Shown: positions 21,793-37,508 of the stretch, piece after piece
How the letters are laid out: the number at the start of each line of letters is the position of its first letter
How positions within the stretch are numbered: position 1 is the first letter of the stretch
Assembly: GCA_022822085.1 (NCBI GenBank)
Contig: JAJECK010000083.1
Coordinates: 1 to 47,369 of the forward strand
Source of the DNA: Candidatus Poribacteria bacterium
GTDB taxonomy: Bacteria > Poribacteria > WGA-4E > WGA-3G
Direction of reading: 5' to 3'
Length of the DNA stretch: 47,369 nucleotides
The notes under the pieces: generated by a model
Databases searched by the model: none
What the model was told of the DNA's origin: nothing
Seen by the model: the letters and a program-made list of their open reading frames with translations, nothing else
Position numbers and translations under genes: made by a program

Positions 21793-23157
21793 TTGTTAAA
21801 AGTATCTAAGTTTGGTGGGAGTTCTCTCGCCACAGGAGATCAGGTTCGTCAAGTATGTGATATCATCACTGCTGATCCTGCTCGACGGATTATAGTTGTA
21901 TCTGCCCCTGGGAAACGTCATAGCAGCGACATTAAAGTCACGGATCTACTCATTTCAGCAGCATCAGAAAGGTTGATGGGGAAAATTGGTGCTTCAGAAT
22001 GTGCAGAGGCAATAGAACGATACCGGGATATTGCAGCAGAATTGGAACTTCCCACTGAGATAGTTGAATCTATAGCACAAGATTTTACAGAGCGGCTTGA
22101 AAACAACATTGATGATTCCGATCTGTATATGGACACGATGAAGGCGGGTGGAGAGGATAACTGTGCACGTTTAATTGCCCAAGTGTTACAAGCACGTGGT
22201 TTTGAAGCGCACTACGTAAATCCGATGGACGCGGGACTTTTGCTTTCAGATGAACCGGGGAATGCACATGTTCTTCCTGAAGCATATAATCGTTTACGTC
22301 ACCTTCCAGACCGTCCTGGTATAACAATTTTTCCGGGGTTTTTCGGTTATTCAAGTGAAGGACATGTTGTAACCTTTTCTCGTGGTGGCTCGGATATTAC
22401 AGGTGCGATTCTTGCAGGTGCTGTTCGTGCAGAAGTATACGAGAACTTCACTGATGTTGACTCCGTGTTCGCTGCAAATCCATCTATAGTATCAGATCCT
22501 GCCCCGATTTCAGAACTCACATATCGCGAGATGCGCGAACTATCTTATGCCGGTTTTTCTGTGTTCCATGATGAGGCATTAGAACCGGTATATCGTGCAA
22601 TGGTACCTGTGCACATACGAAATACTAACAATCCTAAGGCTAAAGGCACACTAATTGTTCCGCAATGCAACACAAGGAAAACACCCGTTGTCGGAATTGC
22701 GGCGATGAGTAATGTATGTTGTGTTTATCTTAGTAAGTATCTTATGAACCGACAAATAGGGTTCGGTAGAAGATTGCTACAGATCTTAGAAGGTGAAAAC
22801 ATATCATTTGAACATGTCCCGTCTGGTATTGACAATATGTCTGTAATCATTCGCGAAGATAACCTACCTGCTGAGAAAGAAAAGAGAGTTGTGGAAGAGA
22901 TACGACAAACGCTTGCCCCTGAAGATGTATCTGTTGAACGAGGGTTATGTATCATAATGGTAGTAGGTGAAGGTATGCAGCATACAGTTGGCATAGCAGC
23001 ACGAGCAACAGGGGCATTAGCAAATTCGGATGTAAATATTGAGATTATCAACCAAGGTTCCAATGAAGTTAGCATGATGTTCGGTGTAAAATCTGCGGAT
23101 ATGGATATTGCGGTTCAAGCACTCTATAAGGAATTTTTTGATGGTCATAACAGTTAA
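21793..23157 (+). CDS. lysC: Aspartate kinase
   Basis: 454 residues. The kinase domain starts KVSKFGGSSLATG (KFGGSS is the family signature) and includes VTFSRGGSDITGAILAG and YENFTDVDSVF. The C-terminal ~150 residues form ACT domains (GEGMQHTVGIAARATGALA, NVNIEIINQGSNEVSMMFGV type), the usual site of lysine or threonine feedback. It phosphorylates aspartate at the head of the Lys/Thr/Met pathway. It is monofunctional: no homoserine dehydrogenase domain. The start is TTG, supported by GGAGG seven bases upstream. It overlaps the downstream PhyH gene by 17 bases, an unusual partner. Confidence 0.9.
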   Translation: MLKVSKFGGSSLATGDQVRQVCDIITADPARRIIVVSAPGKRHSSDIKVTDLLISAASERLMGKIGASECAEAIERYRDIAAELELPTEIVESIAQDFTERLENNIDDSDLYMDTMKAGGEDNCARLIAQVLQARGFEAHYVNPMDAGLLLSDEPGNAHVLPEAYNRLRHLPDRPGITIFPGFFGYSSEGHVVTFSRGGSDITGAILAGAVRAEVYENFTDVDSVFAANPSIVSDPAPISELTYREMRELSYAGFSVFHDEALEPVYRAMVPVHIRNTNNPKAKGTLIVPQCNTRKTPVVGIAAMSNVCCVYLSKYLMNRQIGFGRRLLQILEGENISFEHVPSGIDNMSVIIREDNLPAEKEKRVVEEIRQTLAPEDVSVERGLCIIMVVGEGMQHTVGIAARATGALANSDVNIEIINQGSNEVSMMFGVKSADMDIAVQALYKEFFDGHNS

Positions 23158-23965
23158 ACCGAAAGAATTAGCGGCGGGAAAACTCACTGAGAGACAGGTC
23201 GAACAAGCTATAGAAGCTATCCGCACTGAAGGTTATGTAGTATTGGAGAACATAATCAGTCATGACCATTTAGATATATTGCGAGAACGAATGGATGCTG
23301 ATTCACGAAAGTTGATAAAAGCCGAAAAATGGGGTGGTGCTGGAATGCTTAAAGGGCATTTACAACAAGGACCCCCTCCGTTTGCTCCTTATATTTTCAG
23401 AGACGTAGTTGCCAATCCTTATGTTGTGCAGTTAACGAAGGAATTACTTGGAAATGGTGTCTATAATAATTTCTACAACGGTAACACAAACTGTCCGGGT
23501 AGTGGTACGCAACCGCTGCACAGAGATGGAGATCATCTGTGGCAAAACCTGAAATCTGCACATCCAACTGCAGAGGTAGTGGTAAATATTTCACCCCAAG
23601 ATACGACAGAGGAAAATGGAAGTGTAGAACTGTGGCCTGGTTCACATCTGGATGTCAGTGGACGCCATATTGATGACGAACGTGAAGCAAGACGGCGAGA
23701 AATCGCTCCACCTATACGTGGAAATGCAAAGAAGGGTAGCGCGCTGATTCGAGATATGCGACTTTGGCATCGGGGTGTACCTAACTTGTCTGACGAACCG
23801 CGTCACATGATAGCAATGATACATCGTATACACTGGTTACGTTCAGGAAGACGACTGAAGTATCAAACAGGTTGTGAGAAAGCGTTTGAAAACAGTGACC
23901 TCGATCATAATGCAGTATTCGTTGATGATAAGTTGGATGACTATCTCTTCAATCCAAAATTTTGA
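23141..23965 (+). CDS. PhyH-family Fe(II)/2-oxoglutarate dioxygenase
   Basis: 274 residues from the ATG at 23141, supported by AAGGA eight bases upstream; the start lies inside the end of lysC. The triad is H127-R-D129 (PLHRDGDHLW) and distal H210 (MRLWHRGVPN), with R221 likely binding 2-oxoglutarate. IRTEGYVVLENIIS is the usual N-terminal motif. The predicted role is hydroxylation of an unknown small molecule. The 17-base overlap with lysC and a 27-base gap to the following ATPase-fusion gene indicate one operon. It differs from ectoine hydroxylase in its iron-binding motif. Confidence 0.85.
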   Translation: MVITVKPKELAAGKLTERQVEQAIEAIRTEGYVVLENIISHDHLDILRERMDADSRKLIKAEKWGGAGMLKGHLQQGPPPFAPYIFRDVVANPYVVQLTKELLGNGVYNNFYNGNTNCPGSGTQPLHRDGDHLWQNLKSAHPTAEVVVNISPQDTTEENGSVELWPGSHLDVSGRHIDDEREARRREIAPPIRGNAKKGSALIRDMRLWHRGVPNLSDEPRHMIAMIHRIHWLRSGRRLKYQTGCEKAFENSDLDHNAVFVDDKLDDYLFNPKF

Positions 23966-23992: not shown

Positions 23993-26500
23993 ATGAGAAG
24001 ATTCGGAACTCAAGGTCCTGTCAATTCCGAAGAACACTATGTAGTATCACGTAGTGATGAACTTGCGGATTACATTGACCGCTTGAAACAAGGACGATAC
24101 AATGTGCTTTTTGCACCACGTCAAAGTGGAAAGACGACATTCTTCAAGGAGGCACTCAAGGTGCTTGTGGAAGAAGACTCATCATTTTTCCCTATTCAAC
24201 TCAATTTTGAAGAATATAAAAATCGCACATCGGATCAATTCTACGTTGACATCTATAACGATATATGTGAGGAAATTGAGTATTTCATAGAAAGTCGAAA
24301 TTCAGAACTGACTCAAAAGTATCTTGAATTTATATCCAGTCCAAGAATTACTGATTCTGTATCTATGAGAAGATTCTTCAGTCAGTTGCCTGATATACTC
24401 AATAGTGATAAACACATATCTTCATCACCTCGAATTGTGATTATTATTGATGAGTTTGATGGGATACCGCAAGCCGTTGTCAATGACTTTCTGCATACAC
24501 TCCGAAGAATTTATCTTACCGATAGAAATGTTCGCTCTCCATATAGTGTCAGCATTGTCGGTGTAAAAAACATTACTCAACTAAATTATGATCGTTCTAT
24601 TTCCCCATTTAATATACAAGATGAGTTCACTTTGCCAAACTTTACGCATCAACAGGTGCGTGAATTATTCGCTCAATATACGGATGAAGTTGGCCAATTA
24701 ATTTCTCCGGAAGTGCTTGAAGGACTGCATAAACAGACTGCTGGACAACCATTCCTTGTCAATAGAATTGCTCAAATTCTTACAGATGAACTTGATATTC
24801 CAAAGAGCGGGACAATTCAGATGCCGCACTTTCTACAAGCGCATGCCATTCTTCTTGAAGAACGCAACACAAACATTGACCATCTGACAACAAATATTCG
24901 CAGAGATCGTAGGTATGAATCCATGTTGATGGATATAGCATTTTCTGGTGATGGGAAACGTTTTAACTTACGGAATGAGATTATTAGTGATTTAGTAACT
25001 TATGGTGTCATAGAAAAAGGCGAGGATGGACTATGTAAAATCTTAAATCCAATTTATCTTTATTGTATTATTCAAACATTTCAACCACCAGGAAATGGGC
25101 TTGAAAGTGAATATTTCTCCGATGATGGTCCAATTGATTTTACCGGATATTTGACATCTTCTGGAAAGATACAGATGGACGCACTAATAGATAATTTCAA
25201 GAATTTTATTGCGCGTGCTGGATATAGAATACTACAAGTGCCAGGGACACCACAAGAATATGTCGGACAATATTTGCTGTCAGCGTATTTAGATCAATTC
25301 GTACGGACTATAGGGGCATCAATTCGATTGGAAGTTCAGACAGGAAGAGGTAGATCAGACATTATCATTTTTCATAACGGTGTGCAATATATAATTGAAA
25401 CAAAAATATGGCGAAGTGAACGACGTTATAAGTTAGGAAAGCAGCAACTTGCAGAATATATGAAATTGGAAGGGACTACAGAAGGATATTATGTAGTCTT
25501 TGACCATCGCGATAACCCAAATCCATTAGTTGAAACTGACACCTTCGAAAACCTTACTATTCGGAGTTATGTAATACCTGTATTGCAAAAACCTCCATCC
25601 CAAAATTTATTAGAACAACAGTTATCGTATATATCACAGGAAACACACAATTTGGAGTTGAGTATGAAATCTGAAACGAACTGGTACCCTGCAGAACCTG
25701 ATCTCAAGACTGTTTGTGAAAAATTCGAAGATCCGATATATTCGCTATCTCAAGCGGAAATACCTGCTATTATCCTAAGAAATGCATATCCTCCTGAACA
25801 CTGTCAAGGATTGATCGATAGATTTACAAATATGGGTTTGATGCGAGATGAGGCAGATACCAATACAGCAGACAAGCGTACACGTATTGATATCGGTACA
25901 AGTCTGGGTAATCGTGGAAGCAATAAACCCGGCTTTTTATCACATGCAGAAACTACTCACCATCTTTTCCAATTCCTTTTTGACGGTTTTGATAATCCTG
26001 TTGACCTGATTTATGAATCCCTTTCTGCGCTTTCTCCTGGTAAAGAAGTTAAGGTTGCGCGTGAACCAGATGGTTCTTTATATGGACCTGCTATTTTTCG
26101 TATCCACTATGAAACGCATAGTTACAAACCGCACATTGATAGTGTTAAGTACCGTGAGAAACGTACCGATTATTCAGTCTATCGTTTTCAACATCAGTTT
26201 GCAGGTGTCTTGTGCGTTCAGAATGCTGATGCTAATGGTAAAGGGACGCAAGCCATCCTTCATCGTTGTCTCTGGTCTGAAGAAGTTCAACCGTATATTG
26301 CTGAAGAAACATTTGACAAATATGCTGCAAAGAACGATATAGAACAGTGTCAAGTCGATTTACAACAAGGAGATCTCTATTTTTTTAATACCCGTTGTAT
26401 CCACGAAGTACCTGCAGTTGAAGGTTCGAGGGCAAGAATTGTATTGGCTGTATTCATCGGTTATTCACCTGACGACAGTGAAGTGTATGTTTGGTCGTGA
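23993..26500 (+). CDS. AAA-like ATPase + PD-(D/E)XK nuclease + 2OG-Fe(II) oxygenase fusion
   Basis: 835 residues with three parts in one uninterrupted frame. Residues ~1-300 form an AAA-like (AAA_35/AAA-ATPase) P-loop domain with Walker A APRQSGKTT (K47) and Walker B IVIIIDEFDG (D153, E154). Residues ~390-530 carry a PD-(D/E)XK-type core (D456 in GRSDIII; E469-T-K471 in YIIETKIW), as in PDDEXK_9 domains that usually follow such ATPases. Residues ~558-835 form a prolyl-4-hydroxylase-like 2OG oxygenase: PPEHCQGLIDRF, H714-I-D716 and distal H804 with R813/R815. The first two parts are a known pairing of unknown function; the third is unexpected. AAAGG precedes the ATG. It ends the lysC operon. 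Confidence 0.8.
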   Translation: MRRFGTQGPVNSEEHYVVSRSDELADYIDRLKQGRYNVLFAPRQSGKTTFFKEALKVLVEEDSSFFPIQLNFEEYKNRTSDQFYVDIYNDICEEIEYFIESRNSELTQKYLEFISSPRITDSVSMRRFFSQLPDILNSDKHISSSPRIVIIIDEFDGIPQAVVNDFLHTLRRIYLTDRNVRSPYSVSIVGVKNITQLNYDRSISPFNIQDEFTLPNFTHQQVRELFAQYTDEVGQLISPEVLEGLHKQTAGQPFLVNRIAQILTDELDIPKSGTIQMPHFLQAHAILLEERNTNIDHLTTNIRRDRRYESMLMDIAFSGDGKRFNLRNEIISDLVTYGVIEKGEDGLCKILNPIYLYCIIQTFQPPGNGLESEYFSDDGPIDFTGYLTSSGKIQMDALIDNFKNFIARAGYRILQVPGTPQEYVGQYLLSAYLDQFVRTIGASIRLEVQTGRGRSDIIIFHNGVQYIIETKIWRSERRYKLGKQQLAEYMKLEGTTEGYYVVFDHRDNPNPLVETDTFENLTIRSYVIPVLQKPPSQNLLEQQLSYISQETHNLELSMKSETNWYPAEPDLKTVCEKFEDPIYSLSQAEIPAIILRNAYPPEHCQGLIDRFTNMGLMRDEADTNTADKRTRIDIGTSLGNRGSNKPGFLSHAETTHHLFQFLFDGFDNPVDLIYESLSALSPGKEVKVAREPDGSLYGPAIFRIHYETHSYKPHIDSVKYREKRTDYSVYRFQHQFAGVLCVQNADANGKGTQAILHRCLWSEEVQPYIAEETFDKYAAKNDIEQCQVDLQQGDLYFFNTRCIHEVPAVEGSRARIVLAVFIGYSPDDSEVYVWS
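25654..25666 (+). promoter_or_regulatory. Possible internal ribosome site and start before the 2OG-oxygenase part
   Basis: GGAG at 25654-25657 lies six bases before an in-frame ATG at 25664 (Met558), exactly at the domain boundary. Starting there would give a free ~278-residue oxygenase. Confidence 0.4.
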
Positions 26501-26603: not shown

Positions 26604-29492
26604 ATGAAGAGTACCGTTTTTTTATTTCTATTAACTATTTTTTCTGTTTCCTTATTTTTTCATGTAGACACAATTGCCCAAACAACTACACAATTAAGTT
26701 TACCAGAGAATGCAGTAGCACGTCTTGGTAAGGGGAGGATAAGTGAAATCCAATATTCACCTGATGGTACATATTTAGCTGTAGTTAGTTCCATAGGTGT
26801 CTGGCTCTATGATACACAAACATATACGGAAACAGCATTACTTTCAGGTGATACAGGGACTGTCTATTGTGTTGCTTTTAGTTCAGATGGTCTAACAGCT
26901 GCAACCGGTAATGATGACGGATCTATATGGCTTTGGAATGTTGCTTCCGGGACACAACAACATATCTTTACAGGACACACAGGTGCTGTTGTAAGTGTTG
27001 CATTTAGCGCGGATAATGAAACACTTGCAAGTGGAAGTAGTGACGGTACAATACGACTTTGGAATTATTCAACCCGCGAATATCAAAGAACACTTGATGG
27101 TCATTTTGATTCAGTTACAAGTGTGGCGTTCAGTACAGCAGGTACAACTCTTGCGAGTGGTAGTTTGGATACCTCTGTTCAGATATGGGATGTTTCTACA
27201 GGTGAACAACAACATGTGCTTATAGGACATGATGATTCTGTGTATAGCGTGGCATTCAGTCCAACTGAAGCAACACTTGCAAGTAGCAGTCGTGATGGAA
27301 CGATCAGATTGTGGTATACTGCATTTGGAGTGCATAAACAGACACTTCCCGGTCATGAGGGGCCTGTCTTAGATGTAGCATATAGCCCTAACGGAAATAC
27401 TATAGCCAGCAGTAGTGCAGATGGAACTATCGTAATGTGGGATACAGTTTCTGGTCAAGCTCAACAGGTACTAACCGGACATACGAATGTTGTGCTGAGT
27501 GTTGCGTACAGTTCTACTGGTGGAACTATTGCAAGTGGTGGAGCTGATGGCACTGTACGTCTTTGGGATGCAATCTTTGGAGGACAGCGGCAAGCCCTGA
27601 CAGGTTATACAGGTTATATCTTGGATACAGCCTTCAGTATTGATGGGAACACAATTGCCAGTAGTGGATCAGACAATGTAATTAATTTGTGGAATGGAAC
27701 AACAGGTCAACATCAGCAGATGTTAATTGGGCATGAAGACTGGATTTGGAGTGTTGTTTACAGTCCCGATGGAAGTACTATCGCAAGTGGTAGTGATGAT
27801 GGGACAATACGTTTATGGGATAGTACTACAGGGGAACATCAAAGAACTTATGAAGGACATACAGATTGGGTTTGGAGTGTTGCTTACAGTCCCGATGGAT
27901 TCACATTAGCAAGTGGTAGTGAAGATGGGACAATACGACTATGGGATGCACTTTACGGTGGTCACATAATGACACTTGAGGAACATGATGGATCAGTATT
28001 GAGTGTTGCATTTAATCCAGATGGAAATATCCTGGCAAGTGGCAGTACTGATGAAACGATACGTCTATGGGATGTTGGTACAGGTAAGGAAATAAAGAGA
28101 CTTACTGGACATACGGATTTTGTGCGTAGTGTGGCATTTAGTCCTAATGGAAATATCCTGGCAAGTGGAAGCGATGATGGTACTGTACGATTATGGGATA
28201 CTGTCTTCGGTGTAGAATTGGAGAGATTTACTGAACATACAGAATTAGTCTGGAGTGTTACTTTTAATAGTAGTGGTGATATCCTCGCGAGTGGAAGTAA
28301 CGACAGGACTGTTCGCTTGTGGGATACTGTGTCGGGCCAACTTTTAGATACTTATATTGGGCACACAAGTGGAATACTGAGTGTTGCATTCAACCCGATC
28401 GGGAATACTTTCGCCAGTTCAAGTGCGGATGGTACGGTTCTTGTATGGAATTTTACACCTCCCTTAACTTCATATCCTACAGTTAGCCTTTCGCCAACTC
28501 CCGTACAATCTCCTGCAATTGGTGGACTCCTTACATTCAATCTCAATATTGAAAATGCAGGAAGCATTTTTGGATATCAAGCAACCGTAAGATATGATGA
28601 ATCTGCTTTGCGGCATGTCAGTAGTTCAAATTTAGATTTTCTCGCATCTGGTGCATATTCTATTTCACCTATAATTAAAGATAATACTGTTACGCTTGCA
28701 GCGTCATCGCTTAGTGGACAAAGTTTTGGGTCTGGAACATTGGCTAATCTAACATTTGAGGTAGTATCGCTAAAACCATCTACTATTACTATATCTAAAG
28801 TTCAGTTGACTGATATATCTGGTAATGTCTATTATGCTCGTGTTAATTCTGCCCAGATCACAGAACCTTCTCGTCAACGAGGCGATCTTAATGGTGATGG
28901 TGTAGTCAACATTCAAGATTTATCCTTAGTTGCATCAAATTTCGGACAAGAAGGAGATAATCTTGCGGATGTCAATGGAGATGGTGTTGTTAATATCGTA
29001 GACCTAACTTTAGTTGCAGCAGCAATGGCAAGTCCTTCATCTGCAGCACCAGCAAAATGGTTACACGGTATTGAGAACACACTCACAAGAGCAGAAGTGC
29101 AACAGTGGTTGCATGATGCAAAACAGACTACATTGACTGACCCAACTTTCCAGTATGGTGTTTCAGTATTAGAACAATTGCTTGTATTATTAACACCACA
29201 AGAAACAGTTTTATTGCCAAACTATCCAAATCCATTCAACCCCGAAACCTGGGTCCCTTATCAATTGTCTCAACCTGCAAAAGTAACCATCCAAATCTTT
29301 ACTGCTGATGGACAGTTAATTCGAACATTAGATATAGGAGAACAGTTGGCAGGACATTATCAACACAAGGATAATGCTGCATACTGGGATGGAAAAAACG
29401 AAATGGATGAACCTGTAGCAAGTGGAGTCTATTTCTATACATTAACCGCAGGCGACTTTTCTGCTACGCGGAAGATGTTAATTGTGAAATAA
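26604..29492 (+). CDS. Secreted WD40 protein with cohesin-like, dockerin and C-terminal FlgD-like modules
   Basis: 962 residues. The signal peptide ends near DTIAQ. By eye I count 14 WD40 blade ends (for example DDGTIRLWD) over residues ~40-620, which suggests two seven-bladed propellers. Residues ~622-753 (VSLSPTPVQSPAIGGLLTF, IFGYQATVRYD) look like a cohesin-type beta-sandwich. Residues ~757-810 hold a dockerin pair (DLNGDGVVNIQDL, DVNGDGVVNIVDL). Residues ~870-962 hold the NYPNPFNPETW cassette ending in ASGVYFYTLTAGDFSATRKM, a FlgD-like or sorting domain. The likely role is an extracellular binding scaffold. AAGGAG precedes the ATG. A 13-bp hairpin follows the gene. Confidence 0.85.
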   Translation: MKSTVFLFLLTIFSVSLFFHVDTIAQTTTQLSLPENAVARLGKGRISEIQYSPDGTYLAVVSSIGVWLYDTQTYTETALLSGDTGTVYCVAFSSDGLTAATGNDDGSIWLWNVASGTQQHIFTGHTGAVVSVAFSADNETLASGSSDGTIRLWNYSTREYQRTLDGHFDSVTSVAFSTAGTTLASGSLDTSVQIWDVSTGEQQHVLIGHDDSVYSVAFSPTEATLASSSRDGTIRLWYTAFGVHKQTLPGHEGPVLDVAYSPNGNTIASSSADGTIVMWDTVSGQAQQVLTGHTNVVLSVAYSSTGGTIASGGADGTVRLWDAIFGGQRQALTGYTGYILDTAFSIDGNTIASSGSDNVINLWNGTTGQHQQMLIGHEDWIWSVVYSPDGSTIASGSDDGTIRLWDSTTGEHQRTYEGHTDWVWSVAYSPDGFTLASGSEDGTIRLWDALYGGHIMTLEEHDGSVLSVAFNPDGNILASGSTDETIRLWDVGTGKEIKRLTGHTDFVRSVAFSPNGNILASGSDDGTVRLWDTVFGVELERFTEHTELVWSVTFNSSGDILASGSNDRTVRLWDTVSGQLLDTYIGHTSGILSVAFNPIGNTFASSSADGTVLVWNFTPPLTSYPTVSLSPTPVQSPAIGGLLTFNLNIENAGSIFGYQATVRYDESALRHVSSSNLDFLASGAYSISPIIKDNTVTLAASSLSGQSFGSGTLANLTFEVVSLKPSTITISKVQLTDISGNVYYARVNSAQITEPSRQRGDLNGDGVVNIQDLSLVASNFGQEGDNLADVNGDGVVNIVDLTLVAAAMASPSSAAPAKWLHGIENTLTRAEVQQWLHDAKQTTLTDPTFQYGVSVLEQLLVLLTPQETVLLPNYPNPFNPETWVPYQLSQPAKVTIQIFTADGQLIRTLDIGEQLAGHYQHKDNAAYWDGKNEMDEPVASGVYFYTLTAGDFSATRKMLIVK

Positions 29493-29543
29493 TTTACCAC
29501 TGTTGTTAAATCACTTCTGAAATATACCTTTACCAACGATCAA

Positions 29544-29596
29544 AATAGGAGTTCACACAACAATGCTTGTTATCTCAGGTGGCGTGAACTCCTATT
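29544..29596 (+). terminator. Hairpin after the first WD40 gene
   Basis: A perfect 13-bp inverted repeat, AATAGGAGTTCAC (29544-29556) and GTGAACTCCTATT (29584-29596), with a 27-base loop. There is no T-run after it, so classical intrinsic termination is doubtful; it may stabilise the mRNA end or be a repeat. Confidence 0.4.
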
Positions 29597-29701
29597 CACT
29601 TCATTAATCCCTCTATATCATATTTGATAATTCCACTATTTTAACACTCAATCACATTAGTTTTTGTATTACACACAAAAAAATGTCTATTTCAGTATAT
29701 T

Positions 29702-29817
29702 TTATAGTAAAACCCACAATTACATGGACATTGGCGCGGTTAGGAAACCTCGCCAGCGTTATGGTGTGGGGTTTGTTGTTCATTGAAATGTGAACATATT
29801 TTCGGATTTTACTATAA
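29702..29817. repeat. MITE-like element, family 3
   Basis: A 116-bp segment bounded by TTATAGTAAAACCC and GGATTTTACTATAA. Its middle contains GGTTAGGAAACCTCGCCAGCG, shared with the family 2 elements at 20042 and 41619, although the ends differ. No coding capacity. Confidence 0.7.
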
Positions 29818-29981
29818 TGTGTGCTTTATAATCAATGACACTTCTGGTATTGTTGTAATTCAACTGCACAGAATTGTGCACAATGATGTGAGATGTACAT
29901 TTACGTGCAGATTTACTATTTTCCAGATACTTACCCGATGAATTACCCTCACGTGAACAATTATAATTACAAAGTTATATA

Positions 29982-30103
29982 ATCAGGACTTACGCATTTC
30001 CTCTTAAAGTCACTTGGTAAGGGGACTTAGAAGATAAATAACTAAAATGACGACTTTTTAACCACCCTAACCCCTTTATCAAGGGGAATGCGTAAGTCCT
30101 GAT
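29982..30103. repeat. MITE-like element, family 4
   Basis: A 122-bp segment with ~19-bp terminal inverted repeats: ATCAGGACTTACGCATT on the left and AATGCGTAAGTCCTGAT on the right. A palindrome CCTTTATCAAGG lies near the right end. Decayed relatives of its interior and right end occur at about 400-440 and 645-690. Apart from this, the family 3 element and the hairpin at 29544, I see nothing gene-like in the 817-base gap. Confidence 0.75.
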
Positions 30104-30309
30104 AATTATCATAGTTGGGAAATTATACATATCTGATATAGATAGCAACAGATATTATAGGTAAATTCCTCAATCAGACATATTATTCAAATTATATCAG
30201 AAACTGATCCAATTGGCATACGTTTTGCTTCACTATGACTATAAAAGTCATGATCAATTGGAGTAATACGGACTATGACTACGGTATTGACTAAATAGGA
30301 GGCTAAATC

Positions 30310-32835
30310 ATGAAAACTTTACAAATGTCACTGGTTATATGTTGTGTTATTGTAATCCTTTTACATTCAAATACTTTTGCCCAAGATTTTTCTAAGTGGA
30401 GTTTACCTGAAGGTGCAAAATTACGTATCGGTAAGGGAAATGTAGGCAGTATAAGGTTTTCACCCGATGGCAATCGTTTGACTGTTGGCAGTAGCATAGG
30501 TTTTTGGATATATGATGCATACACGGGGGATGAGCTGGATTTAATTTCTGTGAATCAAAATAATGTAATTGGGGTGAGTCAAGATGCAAAATTTTATGTA
30601 GAAAAAAGTCCAGACAGGACAGTAAATGTGCGAAATCTTGGAGATCGTAGTGTCATAACGACATTAGAAGGAGATAATTCTGATATCTACTATGTGCGAT
30701 TTAACCTTGAGAAGAATATCCTGGCAAGTGATATCGGCACCGAAATACGTGTGTGGGATCTTAGTACAGGAGAACTCAAGACCTCAATCGATTTAGAAAC
30801 AGATTGGATATATGAAGTTGTTTTAAGTCCAGATGGAACAAAACTTGCGAGCATAAGTAAAGATTCCGATGATCGAGTGTTTCAATTGTGGGATGTTGCT
30901 ACAGGATCTCACATAACCACTCTATCCAGATTTGCGTTCAATATTCGGGATCTTGTTTTCACTCCTGATAGTAATACGATTATAAGTGGAAGTGAAACTT
31001 CAATCCAAATTTGGGATATTGCTGCTGGGAAAAGAACGCTCAATTTCAGGACTCCCTATTTCAATAGTATTTCTGTGAGTCCAAATGGTAACATTCTTGC
31101 AACTGGGGGTGCAAAAGGAATACATTTTTGGGACATTGCTACAGGCGAACATATTACGTATTTTGGTGAGCATCAGTGGGGATACTTTATTGCATTTAGT
31201 CCGGATGGCAAGACGTTAGCAAGTGGTGGGGGTGATGAACTGTATCTTTGGGATGTCGTAAGTAACGAGCGGAAATTGACGATTCATGGACATACAAGAG
31301 CAGTTGTAAATATGGCAAACAGTCCAAACGGTACTATTCTTGCTACTTCAGATTCGCATAACATCCATCTGTGGGATCCAAACACTGGAGATTATATACA
31401 GATGGTATATCATCGTGGTCGGCACTCAAACCCAAGAAATTTAGTTTTCAGTCCTGATGGGAACACGCTTGCAAGTACAGATTATGGGGCAATTCAACTT
31501 TGGGATATTAACCGTAAATCACATATAACCACTATCTATAAGTGGTTTGGGCACGGTCAAGCAAACACTTCAACTACATCCAATGGGTATACCTCAGTTG
31601 CTTTTAGTCCAGATGGTCAATATATTGCTTCAGGACATATTGACAGTACAATTCATTTTTGGTATATGGGAAGAACTTACATTTATGCTTTGAAAGGACA
31701 TACAGATGTTGTGACTTCAATAGCATTCTTTAGTAATCGTCGTACTCTTGTCAGTGGAAGTTATGATGGCACAGTACGTTTATGGGATTTGAATTCACGA
31801 TCAAATTTAGAAACATTCATCGGACATACTGATAAAGTCTATAGTGTTGCAGTAAGCCCTGATGAAAGTATTATTGCCAGTGGAAATGATGACAATACTA
31901 TTATCATAAGGGATATTGCAACTGGTAATTCGAGGGTTATCCAGACAAATCATGCCGAAGGGGTACATATACTTAAATTTAGCAATGATGGAAAGACACT
32001 TGCCAGTTGTGGGAAACGGGGGTATTGGGGAGACTCGACTATACAGATTTGGGATGTTACCAATGCAGAATTGATAACTAACATCACTGCCCATACTTAT
32101 GGTGGTGTCGTTGTTGATTTTAGTCCTGATGGTAGAACGCTTATCAGTGGAAGTTCGGATGGGACAATTTTATTTTGGGATTACTCTATGTTAATTGGTA
32201 CTGATGTTGAAACACAAAAATTAACTGAAGATGTGAATGGCGATGGAACTGTAGATCTACAAGATCTGATTTTTGTTGCATCACAATTCGGACAAGTCGG
32301 AAATTCCAATACAGCTGATGTCAACCGGGATGGTGTTATCAATATCGCGGATATTCTATTAGTTGCTGCTGCGCTTGCCGAAGAGAATGCAGCACCATCA
32401 ATCTATACAAACTCAAACAAATTGTTACATGCTGCAGAAGTTGAACAATGGTTAAATCAAGCACGACATGTCAATACAAATATACCAAGATTGCAAACAG
32501 GAATTGCAGTCCTTAAACAGCTTTTAGCTGCATTGACTCCAGAAAAGACTGTGCTTTTATCCAACTATCCAAACCCATTCAACCCAGAAACGTGGATACC
32601 CTATCAGTTGTCAGAGCAGGCTGATGTAACCCTCCACATCTATTCTTCAGATGGACAGTTGGTTCGGACATTAGCTTTGGGCAAACAATCTGCAGGAATA
32701 TATCAAAATCGTAATAGTGCAGCATATTGGGACGGTAAAAATGAACTTGGTGAACCGGTGGCAAGTGGAGTCTACTATTATACACTTACTGCTGGAGATT
32801 TTATAGGGACACGTCGAATGGTTATACGTAAATAG
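30310..32835 (+). CDS. Secreted WD40 protein with dockerin and C-terminal FlgD-like module
   Basis: 841 residues. The signal peptide ends near NTFAQ. The mature start SLPEGAKLRIGKG is shared with its three paralogs in this block. I count 14 blade ends by eye (SIGFWIYD through SDGTILFWD) in residues ~40-630, several diverged (for example DDNTIIIRD). A dockerin pair at ~640-690 (DVNGDGTVDLQDL, DVNRDGVINIADI) should bind two calcium ions. The C-terminal cassette (~750-841) has NYPNPFNPETW, AYWDGKNELGEPVASGVYYY and ends RRMVIRK. There is no cohesin-like part, unlike the upstream paralog. GGAGG precedes the ATG. The next paralog starts 10 bases after the stop, so these two form an operon. Confidence 0.85.
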   Translation: MKTLQMSLVICCVIVILLHSNTFAQDFSKWSLPEGAKLRIGKGNVGSIRFSPDGNRLTVGSSIGFWIYDAYTGDELDLISVNQNNVIGVSQDAKFYVEKSPDRTVNVRNLGDRSVITTLEGDNSDIYYVRFNLEKNILASDIGTEIRVWDLSTGELKTSIDLETDWIYEVVLSPDGTKLASISKDSDDRVFQLWDVATGSHITTLSRFAFNIRDLVFTPDSNTIISGSETSIQIWDIAAGKRTLNFRTPYFNSISVSPNGNILATGGAKGIHFWDIATGEHITYFGEHQWGYFIAFSPDGKTLASGGGDELYLWDVVSNERKLTIHGHTRAVVNMANSPNGTILATSDSHNIHLWDPNTGDYIQMVYHRGRHSNPRNLVFSPDGNTLASTDYGAIQLWDINRKSHITTIYKWFGHGQANTSTTSNGYTSVAFSPDGQYIASGHIDSTIHFWYMGRTYIYALKGHTDVVTSIAFFSNRRTLVSGSYDGTVRLWDLNSRSNLETFIGHTDKVYSVAVSPDESIIASGNDDNTIIIRDIATGNSRVIQTNHAEGVHILKFSNDGKTLASCGKRGYWGDSTIQIWDVTNAELITNITAHTYGGVVVDFSPDGRTLISGSSDGTILFWDYSMLIGTDVETQKLTEDVNGDGTVDLQDLIFVASQFGQVGNSNTADVNRDGVINIADILLVAAALAEENAAPSIYTNSNKLLHAAEVEQWLNQARHVNTNIPRLQTGIAVLKQLLAALTPEKTVLLSNYPNPFNPETWIPYQLSEQADVTLHIYSSDGQLVRTLALGKQSAGIYQNRNSAAYWDGKNELGEPVASGVYYYTLTAGDFIGTRRMVIRK

Positions 32836-32845
32836 GAGATGGAAG

Positions 32846-35422
32846 ATGAAAACAACCCGAAACATTATCATACTGAGTATTCTATTTTCAACTTATTTTA
32901 CATATAGTTCTTTTTCGCAAGATTACATGCAGTGGAGTTTGCCTGAAGGTGCCAAAATGCGCATTGGTAAAGGAGAGATATACGGAAAGATCGCTTTTTC
33001 ACCAGACAGTTCTTTACTGGCAGCGGCAAGCTCTGTTGGTATCTGGGTTTATGATGGACATACGGGAAAAGAACTCAAATTGCTAACCGCAAATTCAGGT
33101 TATAACTCTAATCTTGCATTCAGTCCAGATGGTGAAACTGTTGCATGTAGCAATTCCAATGAACTATTCTTGTGGGATGTTGGCACTGGGGATCTCAAAC
33201 TAACTATATCTGCACACAATTTGGAAATATCAGGAGTTGTATTCAGTCCAGATGGTCAGACTGTTGCAACAAGTAGTAATTATGGTAAAGACAGAACAAT
33301 TAAGTTTTGGGATGTCTCAAACGGTGCTCTAAACTATACTATTTTGGGGCATGAAGGTGGTGATCTGGCTATTAACTTTAGCCCAGATGGAAGGTTTTTT
33401 GGTAGTTTAGGTGATACTGACGTTGAAGGAGAAGGAACTTCAATAAGAATATGGGAAGTTGCGACGTGGGAACTCAAAACAAAATTTGTTTCTAAGGAAA
33501 ATTGGGCTTTTTACTTTTACAATCCGAAAATCGTTTTCAGTCCAGCAGGTAATACATTGGCAGCTTGTGGAGGTGCCAGCAGATGGATAGCACATATCTT
33601 TCTTTGGGATATAGCAAGTAATTCTTTAAAAAACACACTAATAGGCCATACAGGTGGAGTCTACGATATCGCCTTCAGTCCAGATGGAAAAACACTTGCA
33701 AGTGGCAGTTTTGATAAGACAGTCTGTCTGTGGGATGTTGCTACAGGAAAACATAAGTCTACAATCATAGCACATACTGACTACATTACAAGTGTTGCAT
33801 ATAGTCCTGATGGATCTACATTTGCAAGTTATGGTCAGGATGGAACTATCATTCTGTGGGATACAGAGGATTTTGAACAAAGAACGACAATCACTGGACA
33901 TATTTCCGGTTTCCCAAGGATAGCATTTAGTCCAGATGGAGAAACAATGGTGAGCGGAAGTGGTGATAAGACATTGCGTCTTTGGGACACAACAACAGGT
34001 AGAAATATAAAATCATTTATTGGACATATAGGTCCGGTTACATCAGTCGCCTTTAGTCCTGATGGACGCACTATAGCAAGTAACGGAGGCGTTGTATTTG
34101 GAGATAGATGGTTCGCCGATGACTACCCGATTAGGTTATGGGAAGTTTCCACTGGTTCACAGATCGCGACAATAATGGGACATGATAATATAGATGAAAT
34201 CATTCGTGTAAACTTTAGTCCAGATGGAAGGTTACTCACGAGTTACTCGCTTGACAGAAAACCAATTTTTTGGGAAGTTACTACAGGCAATTATCTATGG
34301 ACATTCACAGGAAATTGGGAAGATGTTGGATATATGGCATTCAGTCCGGATGGACAGAAAATCGTATATGGAAATACCGATGGCGTATATTTATGGGATA
34401 TTATTAGTAGGAAACAAATTGCCAGGTACAATGGTTCTATACCTAAAACCACCAATATCGTCTTCAGTCCTGATGGGAACACTATTGCTGCTGGTGGTAT
34501 TGGACAGGAGGTGCATCTGTGGAATGTCTATACTGGAGAGAGTAAAACTATTATCACTGGTCATGATGGACTATTCAAAACAGTACTTTTTAGTCCAGAA
34601 GGACAAACCGTCCTAACTGCTGGAGGATGGGAAGATGGAAGGTTGCAATTTTGGGAACTGGAAACTGGTGCTCTAAAATTAGTGCTATACATGCCACTTG
34701 GACCATATAACTTAGCGTTTAGTCCTGATGGCAAGACTCTTGCATCATCACATGAACATGGTACAATACTTCTTTGGGACTATGGATCTTTCTTCAACAC
34801 AACACGACACGCAGCCGATGTCAACAATGATGGATTAGTTGATATACATGATTTAGTTGTGGTTGCAGCAAATTTCGGGAAAACTGGTATAAACGATGCG
34901 GATGTTAATGGTGATGGTGTTGTTGACATTGCGGATCTATTAATAGTTGCGAGTGCATTGGATGTAGCGACTGCTGCCCCGTTAGCAAAAAGTCGAAACT
35001 TACACACCACATTGGCAAGAACCGATATACAAAACTGGTTGGTCCAAGCGAGACAATTGAACGTTTCGGATGTCATATCTCACAGAGGAATCCAGTTTCT
35101 TGAACAACTCTTACTCACATTAGCTCCAGAGAAAACCACTCTGCTTCCAAACTATCCAAACCCATTCAACCCTGAAACTTGGATACCGTATCAATTATCA
35201 GAATCAACAGATGTTTCAATCCAGATTTATTCCTCTGATGGACAGTTGATTCGCACCTTAGACTTAGGAGAAAAGACATCAGGCTTATATCAAAGCAAAG
35301 GAACTGCAGCTTATTGGGATGGTAAGAACGAAATTGGTGAATCCGTCGCAAGTGGTGTTTATTACTATACCCTAACCGCTGGACAGTATATTGCAACGCG
35401 TAAAATGTTGATTCGGAAATAA
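32846..35422 (+). CDS. Secreted WD40 protein with dockerin and C-terminal FlgD-like module
   Basis: 858 residues, organised like the gene before it. The signal peptide ends near YSSFSQ, then SLPEGAKMRIGKG. I count 14 blade ends (SVGIWVYD through HGTILLWD), again fitting two seven-bladed propellers. The dockerin pair is at ~657-710 (DVNNDGLVDIHDL, DVNGDGVVDIADL). The C-terminal cassette at ~767-858 (NYPNPFNPETW, AYWDGKNEIGESVASGVYYY) ends RKMLIRK. AGGAG precedes the ATG, which is 10 bases after the previous stop, so it is co-transcribed. The probable location is extracellular or surface-bound. Confidence 0.85.
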   Translation: MKTTRNIIILSILFSTYFTYSSFSQDYMQWSLPEGAKMRIGKGEIYGKIAFSPDSSLLAAASSVGIWVYDGHTGKELKLLTANSGYNSNLAFSPDGETVACSNSNELFLWDVGTGDLKLTISAHNLEISGVVFSPDGQTVATSSNYGKDRTIKFWDVSNGALNYTILGHEGGDLAINFSPDGRFFGSLGDTDVEGEGTSIRIWEVATWELKTKFVSKENWAFYFYNPKIVFSPAGNTLAACGGASRWIAHIFLWDIASNSLKNTLIGHTGGVYDIAFSPDGKTLASGSFDKTVCLWDVATGKHKSTIIAHTDYITSVAYSPDGSTFASYGQDGTIILWDTEDFEQRTTITGHISGFPRIAFSPDGETMVSGSGDKTLRLWDTTTGRNIKSFIGHIGPVTSVAFSPDGRTIASNGGVVFGDRWFADDYPIRLWEVSTGSQIATIMGHDNIDEIIRVNFSPDGRLLTSYSLDRKPIFWEVTTGNYLWTFTGNWEDVGYMAFSPDGQKIVYGNTDGVYLWDIISRKQIARYNGSIPKTTNIVFSPDGNTIAAGGIGQEVHLWNVYTGESKTIITGHDGLFKTVLFSPEGQTVLTAGGWEDGRLQFWELETGALKLVLYMPLGPYNLAFSPDGKTLASSHEHGTILLWDYGSFFNTTRHAADVNNDGLVDIHDLVVVAANFGKTGINDADVNGDGVVDIADLLIVASALDVATAAPLAKSRNLHTTLARTDIQNWLVQARQLNVSDVISHRGIQFLEQLLLTLAPEKTTLLPNYPNPFNPETWIPYQLSESTDVSIQIYSSDGQLIRTLDLGEKTSGLYQSKGTAAYWDGKNEIGESVASGVYYYTLTAGQYIATRKMLIRK

Positions 35423-35484
35423 TAAGAATTACGGAATTGTCTTGGACAGAACACTGATTCGGCCCTTTTTTGTTTACATATTTG

Positions 35485-35512
35485 TTGACATTCTCTTTCC
35501 ATCTGATATAAT
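35485..35512 (+). promoter_or_regulatory. Strong predicted sigma70 promoter for the fourth WD40 gene
   Basis: A perfect TTGACA at 35485-35490 and a perfect TATAAT at 35507-35512 with a 16-base spacer. The ATG at 35565 is 53 bases downstream. Confidence 0.7.
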
Positions 35513-35564
35513 CTATTCGTGTGCATTCATACTACCCAAATTATCCTCCCAAGGAGTAACATCT

Positions 35565-37508
35565 ATGAATAAGTTACGTTTATCGATCTTTTTATCCTTG
35601 ACGATATATTCAATAGTATATATACCTGCAACTTTCGCGGTGAATACCACTATACCCAGTCTACCTGAAGGTGCAATGGTACGATTTGGTAAAGGAACAA
35701 TTAGTCAAATACAATATTCACCGGATGGCAAACACCTTGCGGTTGCAAGTTCAATTGGTATATGGCTTTATAATACTGCCATCTATAGCGAAACAGCGTT
35801 GTTGACAGGACATACGGGAAGAGTAAATTGTATCACTTTCACTCTTGACGGGAAAACACTTGCAAGTGGTAGTTCGGATAAGACTGTTCGTCTTTGGGAT
35901 GTGATGACAGGTGAAAGTAAGCAAATACTCACAGGACATTTGCATGGTATCTACAGTGTAGCATTCAGTCCAGATGGAAAAACAATCGCGGGTGGAAGTA
36001 CTGGTGAACGTGATGGCGAACAAATATTTGGGGCACAAATCAAAATGTGGGATACTGCCACGGGGAAACCCAAACACACACTGACCGCACAAGGACAGGT
36101 AAATTCTCTTGCGATTAGTTCAGATGGAAATATACTTTCAAGTGGTGAGGGTTGGCCAGGGTACGTTGTCCAATTGTGGGACATGGACACAGGTAAAAAA
36201 CTGCGGACACTCACAGGACATACAAATTGGATAAATAGTGTCACCTTTGGACCGGATAAAAACACTTTAATAAGTTCCAGTTCTGACAGAAGCATCCGTT
36301 TATGGGATTATGATACAGGTAAGCAGAAGCGCGTCCTCGTTGAACTGGATAATGTAGTTAATACCACTGCATTTAGTCCTGATGGTAGCCTGATCGCAAC
36401 TGGAGATAGGTTCAATATAGTTCTACGGGATGCTACTACCGGTATCCCCGCACATACACTTGATACAGAAAGTGTAACAAGCGTCACTTTCAGTCCAGAT
36501 GGTAAGACATTTGCAAGTGCACACCACGGTTGGACTTCTCTCATTGTATGGGATGTCACAACATGGAAACAGAAGTTTACACTCAAAGGTTATACACATC
36601 CTGTTATTGACATCGCGTTTAGTCCTGATAATAGTACCCTTGCCAGTGGAGGATTTGATCCTACTATCTATCTTTGGGATATAGTTACAGGCAAACAAGA
36701 AAATAAACTCATATCAGATATGAACTATGTAGGTTGTGTTGCTTTCAGTCCAGATGGTCGGATGTTCGCGAGTGGGAGTTTCCACTCCACTGCTATTCTA
36801 TGGGATGCGATTACATACACAAAAAACCATACCTTTACAGCAAACAACAAAGATCTTAACCCTCTCAGCACTGTCAAGTTAAGCCCTGATTTGAAAATAC
36901 TCGCAGTTGGAAAATCTAAAACCGTGCAACTGTGGGATATTCTAAGTGGAGAACTCAAAACCACACTTCAAGGGCATACAACAGATTTTTCCAGTGTAGC
37001 GTTTAGTCCAGATGGGAAAATACTCGCAAGTGGTGGTGACGTTGAGCATATTGGGGAGGATCATTCCTACGGGTACAAGGGCATCCATCTTTGGGATATG
37101 GAAACAAGTGAAATCATAGAAACTTTTAATGGAAAGATGTGTCCGATTTTATGCGTTGCTTTTAGTCCAAATGGGAAAACACTCGCAAGTGGTGAATCAT
37201 GGGCAGATTATGCTGTTCGTTTGTGGGATGTGTCTACAGGTAAACCCAAATTCGCTCTCAAAGGTCATACAAAGAATGTCTCCAGTGTAGTGTTTAGTCC
37301 TGATGGTAACATCCTCGCAAGTGGTAGTGCTGACAATACTATTCGTCTTTGGAATGTTGTAACAGGAAAATACATAAGGACACTCATAGGACATACAGGT
37401 GCCGTCAACAGTCTTAACTTTAGTTCAGATGGTGACACATTGGCAAGTTGTAGCAATGACGGTACGATACTTTTGTGGAATATTACTACTTCAGATGGCA
37501 CAAAATAG
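35565..37508 (+). CDS. Secreted WD40 protein, propellers only
   Basis: About 647 residues from the ATG at 35565, supported by AAGGAG eight bases upstream; the frame is open back to 35442 through the promoter. The signal peptide ends near PATFA. SLPEGAMVRFGKG is shared with the three paralogs. I count 14 blade ends (SIGIWLYN through NDGTILLWN). It stops directly after the last blade: there is no dockerin and no C-terminal cassette, so it is probably released rather than anchored or docked. It has its own promoter. It is convergent with the HAD gene 14 bases away. Confidence 0.85.
   Translation: MNKLRLSIFLSLTIYSIVYIPATFAVNTTIPSLPEGAMVRFGKGTISQIQYSPDGKHLAVASSIGIWLYNTAIYSETALLTGHTGRVNCITFTLDGKTLASGSSDKTVRLWDVMTGESKQILTGHLHGIYSVAFSPDGKTIAGGSTGERDGEQIFGAQIKMWDTATGKPKHTLTAQGQVNSLAISSDGNILSSGEGWPGYVVQLWDMDTGKKLRTLTGHTNWINSVTFGPDKNTLISSSSDRSIRLWDYDTGKQKRVLVELDNVVNTTAFSPDGSLIATGDRFNIVLRDATTGIPAHTLDTESVTSVTFSPDGKTFASAHHGWTSLIVWDVTTWKQKFTLKGYTHPVIDIAFSPDNSTLASGGFDPTIYLWDIVTGKQENKLISDMNYVGCVAFSPDGRMFASGSFHSTAILWDAITYTKNHTFTANNKDLNPLSTVKLSPDLKILAVGKSKTVQLWDILSGELKTTLQGHTTDFSSVAFSPDGKILASGGDVEHIGEDHSYGYKGIHLWDMETSEIIETFNGKMCPILCVAFSPNGKTLASGESWADYAVRLWDVSTGKPKFALKGHTKNVSSVVFSPDGNILASGSADNTIRLWNVVTGKYIRTLIGHTGAVNSLNFSSDGDTLASCSNDGTILLWNITTSDGTK

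What the first reader, a model, noticed from the sequence alone, without database searches (positions are those of the whole stretch)
23993..26500. Three-domain fusion: AAA-like ATPase, PD-(D/E)XK domain and 2OG-Fe(II) oxygenase
One frame encodes a P-loop ATPase (K47, D153, E154), a nuclease-type core (D456, E469, K471) and a prolyl-hydroxylase-like oxygenase (H714, D716, H804, R813/R815). The first two form a known pair of unknown function in many bacteria and archaea. I know of no described fusion to a 2OG oxygenase. The key residues of all three parts are retained, so the protein looks active. An oxygenase attached to an ATPase/nuclease suggests modification of protein or nucleic acid, possibly in defence or stress response (inference).
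Basis: partly seen in the sequence, partly recalled or inferred. Interest (0 to 1): 0.75.

Follow-up and report, generated by a model that had tools for sequence, protein, structure and literature searches.

The report
AAA-nuclease fused to small-molecule oxygenase
In one genus of sponge-associated Poribacteria, an ATPase-nuclease gene that is dispensable at this site has become joined to a conserved iron/2-oxoglutarate hydroxylase gene, and the fused gene still carries the hydroxylase's own ribosome-binding site and start codon, so the cell can probably make both a fused and a free enzyme.

Summary
One 835-aa frame (23993-26500) encodes an AAA+ ATPase (AAA_35), a PD-(D/E)XK-type domain and a 2OG-Fe(II) oxygenase. 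It is no assembly error: the same 835-aa protein occurs in six species of one Poribacteria genus, one of them on a single 5.3-Mb contig. The oxygenase is not prolyl-hydroxylase-like. It belongs to the WelO5 family (PF22814, E=2e-24; model pLDDT 90, TM about 0.8 to WelO5). It keeps HxD...H, so hydroxylation rather than halogenation is expected. It is a single-copy gene in nearly all related Poribacteria, lies in an aspartokinase-PhyH operon, and stands alone in all other phyla examined. The ATPase-nuclease is a DUF1703-like family with up to 18 copies per genome. In six species of a sister genus the orthologous pair are separate, adjacent genes; elsewhere only remnants of the ATPase-nuclease remain, once inside the fused clade. 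Both halves are under purifying selection (dN/dS about 0.1 and 0.05). The linker drifts, but its GGAG-N6-ATG is kept in all six. Best reading: one operon fusion of a dispensable nucleic-acid-acting module to a small-molecule hydroxylase, with the free hydroxylase still made by internal initiation. Defence or coupled function has no direct support.

The parts
23993..26500 (+). Fused gene, 835 aa: AAA+ ATPase, PD-(D/E)XK-type domain, linker, 2OG-Fe(II) oxygenase
   Evidence: same 835-aa frame in G045, G046, G033, G039, G040
23993..25087 (+). Residues 1-365: AAA+ ATPase (AAA_35); Walker A K47, Walker B D153/E154, G190-x-K192 at the sensor-1 position
   Evidence: AAA_35 42.7 bits over cut-off; residue conservation; RFC/RuvB/ORC-like matches; low global TM
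25088..25612 (+). Residues 366-540: PD-(D/E)XK-type nuclease domain; D456, E469-x-K471, Q485-x3-Y489
   Evidence: PDDEXK_9/NERD matches, mostly below cut-off; residues; predicted helix-strand-strand-strand-helix-strand core at 421-504, pLDDT about 70-90
25613..25663 (+). Linker, residues 541-557: disordered in the model, diverging much faster than the domains
   Evidence: dN 0.4-0.6 between the deeper pairs; pLDDT <50 at 534-568
25654..25657 (+). GGAG, putative retained ribosome-binding site of the oxygenase, 6 nt before its old start codon
   Evidence: GGAG-N6-ATG in 6/6 fused genes; strict motif (GGAG-N5-8) at 34/38 standalone oxygenase starts and 6/116 internal ATGs
25664..26497 (+). Residues 558-835: 2OG-Fe(II) oxygenase of the WelO5 family; H714, D716, H804, R815; M558 aligns with the start of standalone orthologues
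23108..23965 (+). PhyH-family dioxygenase (PF05721), conserved upstream neighbour; its stop lies 27 nt before the fused gene
   Evidence: synteny
21793..23157 (+). Aspartate kinase (NF006540), first gene of the conserved cluster
   Evidence: synteny

Best explanation
The gene is a lineage-restricted operon fusion. A DUF1703-like AAA+/PD-(D/E)XK protein (probably an ATP-dependent nucleic-acid-acting enzyme, one of a large paralogous family) came to lie between the PhyH gene and a conserved WelO5-family oxygenase gene in an aspartokinase-PhyH-oxygenase cluster. In one ancestor of a Poribacteria genus its stop was lost and the frames were joined. Shown: three domains in one frame, one origin of the fused AAA-nuclease half, a separate two-gene state in a sister genus, later deletions, purifying selection on both catalytic parts, a drifting linker, and a kept GGAG-N6-ATG at the joint. 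Inferred: the cell makes the full-length fusion and also a free oxygenase of about 278 aa from the internal start; the oxygenase hydroxylates a small metabolite with Fe(II), O2 and 2-oxoglutarate (HxD facial triad); the AAA-nuclease acts independently on nucleic acid; the tether gives co-expression and co-localisation rather than a joint reaction.
For: Same 835-aa protein in six species, one on a single-contig genome. Sister-genus species with the pair as separate genes about 50 nt apart. Fused AAA-nuclease halves form one clade (100/100), sister to those adjacent copies (98/98), apart from the other paralogues. dN/dS mostly 0.09-0.19 (AAA), 0.06-0.13 (nuclease domain), 0.03-0.11 (oxygenase), with a fast linker. 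Deletion remnants in G082, G072, G034, G042, and a linker remnant in G043, which nests inside the fused clade. Oxygenase standalone in other phyla, with differing neighbours. WelO5/SadA fold and HxD. GGAG-N6-ATG kept in 6/6. The AAA-nuclease family has up to 18 copies per genome.
Against: No expression or protein data; internal initiation rests on a motif in related sequences. Conserved length (835 aa in all six) and selection on both halves could also mean the fused form itself is selected. Substrate of the oxygenase and activity of the nuclease are unknown. PDDEXK_9 is below Pfam's cut-off in this protein, and the full-length model is weak (mean pLDDT 59.5). dS is near saturation for the deeper pairs. 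The oxygenase tree is poorly resolved within the genus.
Confidence: 0.6

Rival explanations
1. The three domains work as one machine: the AAA-nuclease recognises nucleic acid or a threat and the oxygenase modifies a nucleoside, nucleic acid or protein in cis, or its reaction (2OG/O2/iron status) gates the nuclease, as a defence or stress device.
For: Fusion of constant length kept in six species with both halves constrained; PD-(D/E)XK plus AAA+ is common in restriction systems (general knowledge); one distant AAA-nuclease relative lies beside a type I R-M system on a Marinitoga plasmid.
Against: Oxygenase stands alone in most relatives and all other phyla examined; no coupling of the other paralogues to oxygenases in the listed matches; nearest folds act on small molecules; no convincing PADLOC match; lost in G043 from within the fused clade; no match to the query in 50,697 phage records.
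Confidence: 0.2
2. The fusion is a nearly neutral read-through accident: only the internally initiated free oxygenase matters, and the AAA-nuclease half is on its way out.
For: Internal GGAG-ATG kept; repeated deletion of the AAA-nuclease at this site.
Against: All catalytic motifs of the AAA-nuclease are intact in all six and its dN/dS (about 0.1-0.2) is as low as in the unfused orthologues (0.08-0.31).
Confidence: 0.15
3. Sequencing or assembly artefact joining two ORFs.
For: The sister genus has two separate ORFs.
Against: 835-aa frame without a stop in six separate genomes, one a single-contig genome.
Confidence: 0.01

Closest known systems
WelO5/WelO15 (PF22814) carrier-independent Fe(II)/2OG halogenases
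   Same: Family HMM over cut-off, same fold over the whole domain (TM 0.73-0.81), conserved C-terminal ...WS end
   Different: 14-18% identity in the structural alignments; HxD instead of the halogenase HxG, so hydroxylase chemistry expected; fused to an AAA-nuclease
SadA (N-substituted L-amino acid dioxygenase, PDB 3w20/3w21)
   Same: Second-best fold; HxD hydroxylase acting on small amino-acid derivatives (substrate from general knowledge and the PDB title)
   Different: TM only 0.55-0.65; substrate relation untested
DUF1703 proteins (AAA-ATPase_like PF09820 + PDDEXK_9 PF08011), expanded in Cardinium cCpun (PMC6387759, PMC1913061)
   Same: AAA+ then PD-(D/E)XK architecture, altered Walker A, glycine at sensor 1, D-ExK plus helix Q motif, many paralogues in a symbiont genome
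   Different: Pfam places the ATPase in AAA_35 and scores PF09820/PF08011 below cut-off; here one copy is fused to an oxygenase
AAA-like ATPases of cyanobacterial, Bacteroidota and Marinitoga plasmids
   Same: 27-30% identity over residues 1-520
   Different: None of the 30 matching plasmid records covers 80% of the fused protein; those inspected are single-gene ORFs with varied neighbours

Membership tests
2OG-Fe(II) oxygenase superfamily | Double-stranded beta-helix fold with HxD...H and a 2OG-binding Arg | tested here: met
   invariant residues (714, 716, 804, 815); model; fold matches
PF22814 WelO5 family | Score over curated cut-off | tested here: met
   86.8 vs 27 bits
Fe(II)/2OG halogenases (WelO5 type) | Gly/Ala in place of the iron-binding Asp/Glu | tested here: not met
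   D716; Asp invariant in 35 relatives
Prolyl 4-hydroxylase-like | Closest fold and family match among prolyl hydroxylases | tested here: not met
   No prolyl hydroxylase among the 50 best fold matches; Pfam best match is WelO5
AAA_35 (PF14516) | Score over curated cut-off; Walker A/B | tested here: met
   42.7 vs 27 bits; K47/D153/E154
DUF1703 (PF09820 + PDDEXK_9 PF08011) | Score over both cut-offs | tested here: not met
   17.8 vs 26.1 and 16.6 vs 25.5 bits
[quoted passage not shown]
   no solved-structure match found
PD-(D/E)XK phosphodiesterases | Nucleic-acid cleavage | not testable with these tools
   needs biochemistry
Known anti-phage defence systems (PADLOC) | Convincing match to a defence model | tested here: not met
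   best E=6e-4 (18.6 bits) to a generic 2OG model over 117 residues; others E>=0.0065

The most novel reading that the evidence does not exclude
The tethered oxygenase and AAA-nuclease form a metabolite- or oxygen-sensing nuclease: 2OG/O2/iron-dependent turnover at the oxygenase domain gates the ATP-driven nuclease, or the oxygenase modifies nucleosides released by it, with free oxygenase from the internal start acting as a second, untethered form.
Probability: 0.08. Interest if true: 0.75.

Novelty: new variant of a known kind. Interest (0 to 1): 0.42.

Why it matters
It is a caught-in-the-act series (separate neighbours, fusion, deletion remnants) showing how a DUF1703-like AAA-nuclease, from a widespread kind of protein of unknown role, can attach to a conserved metabolic enzyme. 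The fusion offers a handle for testing both: is the nuclease active, what does the WelO5-like hydroxylase act on, and does an internal start give two products from one gene. If the halves prove coupled it would be a new kind of nuclease control.

Tried and rejected
Assembly artefact: rejected. Prolyl hydroxylase: rejected. Halogenase: rejected by HxD. Ectoine hydroxylation suggested by the aspartokinase-PhyH neighbourhood: no ectoine synthase found in the genome, but the control genomes did not ring either, so weak. Mobile element carrying the AAA-nuclease: flanks of paralogues showed no obvious shared ends by eye, and one orthologous group appears to sit beside the same upstream gene in several species; no formal test. 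Other oxygenase or enzyme fusions of the AAA-nuclease: none in the listed matches of 85 genomes, though that list was cut. Structure of the full length with oxygenase-only rows: the first alignment was misaligned and was discarded. PDB sequence search with the nuclease domain: one non-significant match.

Full report
OBSERVATION. The frame 23993-26500 is a single ATG-started ORF of 835 aa. Pfam finds AAA_35 at residues 8-259 (over cut-off), a weak PDDEXK_9 at 443-488 (below cut-off) and the WelO5-family 2OG oxygenase at 576-835 (86.8 bits against a cut-off of 27). In relatives of the middle domain, 24 of 25 members match PDDEXK_9 and 23 match NERD at E<=0.1. K47, D153, E154, E469 and K471 are conserved across fused, adjacent and paralogous copies, and D456 in all but one. 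H714, D716, H804 and R815 are invariant in 35 oxygenases (residue numbers +557).

NOT AN ARTEFACT. The window lies in a Poribacteria genome (named relatives). A search of 85 genomes of the phylum shows the oxygenase in 71, single-copy in nearly all members of the window's family. In G000, G045, G046, G033, G039 and G040, all of one genus, it lies in an open frame of about 836 codons; elsewhere the frame is mostly about 280-310. The fused protein is 835 aa in all six, and G046 is a single contig of 5.3 Mb. Among 80 named loci from several phyla (Latescibacterota, Gemmatimonadota, Chloroflexi and others) only five Poribacteria are fused and four have the AAA-nuclease adjacent; in the rest the oxygenase has no AAA-nuclease neighbour.

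HOW THE FUSION AROSE. The AAA-nuclease belongs to a family with up to 18 detected copies per genome (13 matches in the window's genome) and typical length about 540 aa. In six species of a sister genus an AAA-nuclease gene lies as a separate ORF about 50 nt before the oxygenase. The fused halves form one clade (100/100) whose sister is that adjacent set (98/98), apart from other paralogues. The operon context is aspartate kinase, PhyH dioxygenase, [AAA-nuclease], oxygenase, then WD40 genes. Remnants of the AAA-nuclease start lie directly before 'standalone' oxygenases in G082, G072 and G034; in G042 its first eight codons are joined in frame to the oxygenase, whose own ATG is missing; G043, nested in the fused clade, keeps a linker-like remnant. 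The most economical reading is an ancestral neighbour pair, one fusion, and repeated deletions. Transfer between the genera is not excluded, and the oxygenase tree is poorly resolved within the genus.

SELECTION AND THE JOINT. Pairwise Nei-Gojobori estimates give dN/dS mostly 0.09-0.19 for the AAA part, 0.06-0.13 for the nuclease part and 0.03-0.11 for the oxygenase; the linker has dN of 0.4-0.6 between the deeper pairs. Unfused orthologues give 0.08-0.31. Synonymous distances are near saturation for deep pairs. Within the fast linker all six genes keep GGAG-N6-ATG at the old start. The strict motif (GGAG with 5-8 nt spacing) precedes 34 of 38 standalone oxygenase starts but 6 of 116 other internal ATGs in these genes; GAA is used about 3-5 times as often as GAG in these genes. 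Fisher's test gives 2e-7, but the six genes share ancestry, so this is supportive and not independent evidence. The inference is that a free oxygenase is still made.

WHAT THE DOMAINS DO. The oxygenase model (pLDDT 90.3) matches WelO5 with TM 0.73-0.81 and then SadA at 0.55-0.65; profile search of the PDB agrees. WelO5 halogenases have Gly where this family has Asp (general knowledge; the best PDB sequence and fold match is the WelO5 G166D variant), so hydroxylation of a small molecule is expected; the substrate is unknown. In the full-length model (weak overall, pLDDT 59.5) residues 421-504 form the helix-strand-strand-strand-helix-strand core with D456 on the second strand and E469/K471 on the third, followed by two more strands; residues 534-568 are disordered. 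This fits the DUF1703 description in PMC1913061, including the altered Walker A and the sensor-1 glycine. The best fold matches of the ATPase are RFC, RuvB and ORC AAA+ proteins, at low TM. A DUF1703 expansion is known in the symbiont Cardinium cCpun, role undetermined (PMC6387759). High numbers of PhyH genes in Poribacteria are known (PMC3909097).

VERDICT. A real, lineage-restricted domain fusion of known families. I commit to independent activities in one chain plus a free oxygenase (0.6), over functional coupling (0.2) or neutral read-through (0.15). No fusion of this kind was found in the literature searched, in plasmids or in phages. Defence is not excluded but has no direct support.

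Noticed in passing
L114 (G042), oxygenase start: The oxygenase has lost its own ATG and is joined in frame to the first eight codons of the deleted AAA-nuclease (MRKFGIHG-LAQTDW), directly after the aspartokinase gene; PhyH is missing too.
   Followed up: partly
L138 (G082), L101 (G072), L119 (G034), L112 (G043): Short remnants of the AAA-nuclease gene or its linker between PhyH and the standalone oxygenase, marking independent deletions.
   Followed up: yes
window 26604-37508: A run of four large WD40-repeat genes; the first (26604-29492) ends in dockerin-like and C-terminal sorting-like sequence (by eye).
   Followed up: no
window 23108-23965: PhyH-family neighbour; a Poribacteria PhyH protein has been shown to act on 2'-O-methyl nucleosides (PMC12709175), so a nucleoside substrate is a lead for this cluster; relationship not tested.
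   Followed up: no
L004/L006 (G000:C110:79157-82404): Two AAA-nuclease paralogues in tandem, matches 24 nt apart; they are sister copies in the tree.
   Followed up: partly
L189 (Marinitoga plasmid pMO1): A distant AAA-nuclease relative (30% identity) lies next to a type I restriction-modification system; Pseudanabaena plasmids carry several such genes.
   Followed up: partly
Genomes G019-G023 (same order, genus g9): These carry four or five divergent paralogues of the WelO5-like oxygenase instead of one.
   Followed up: no
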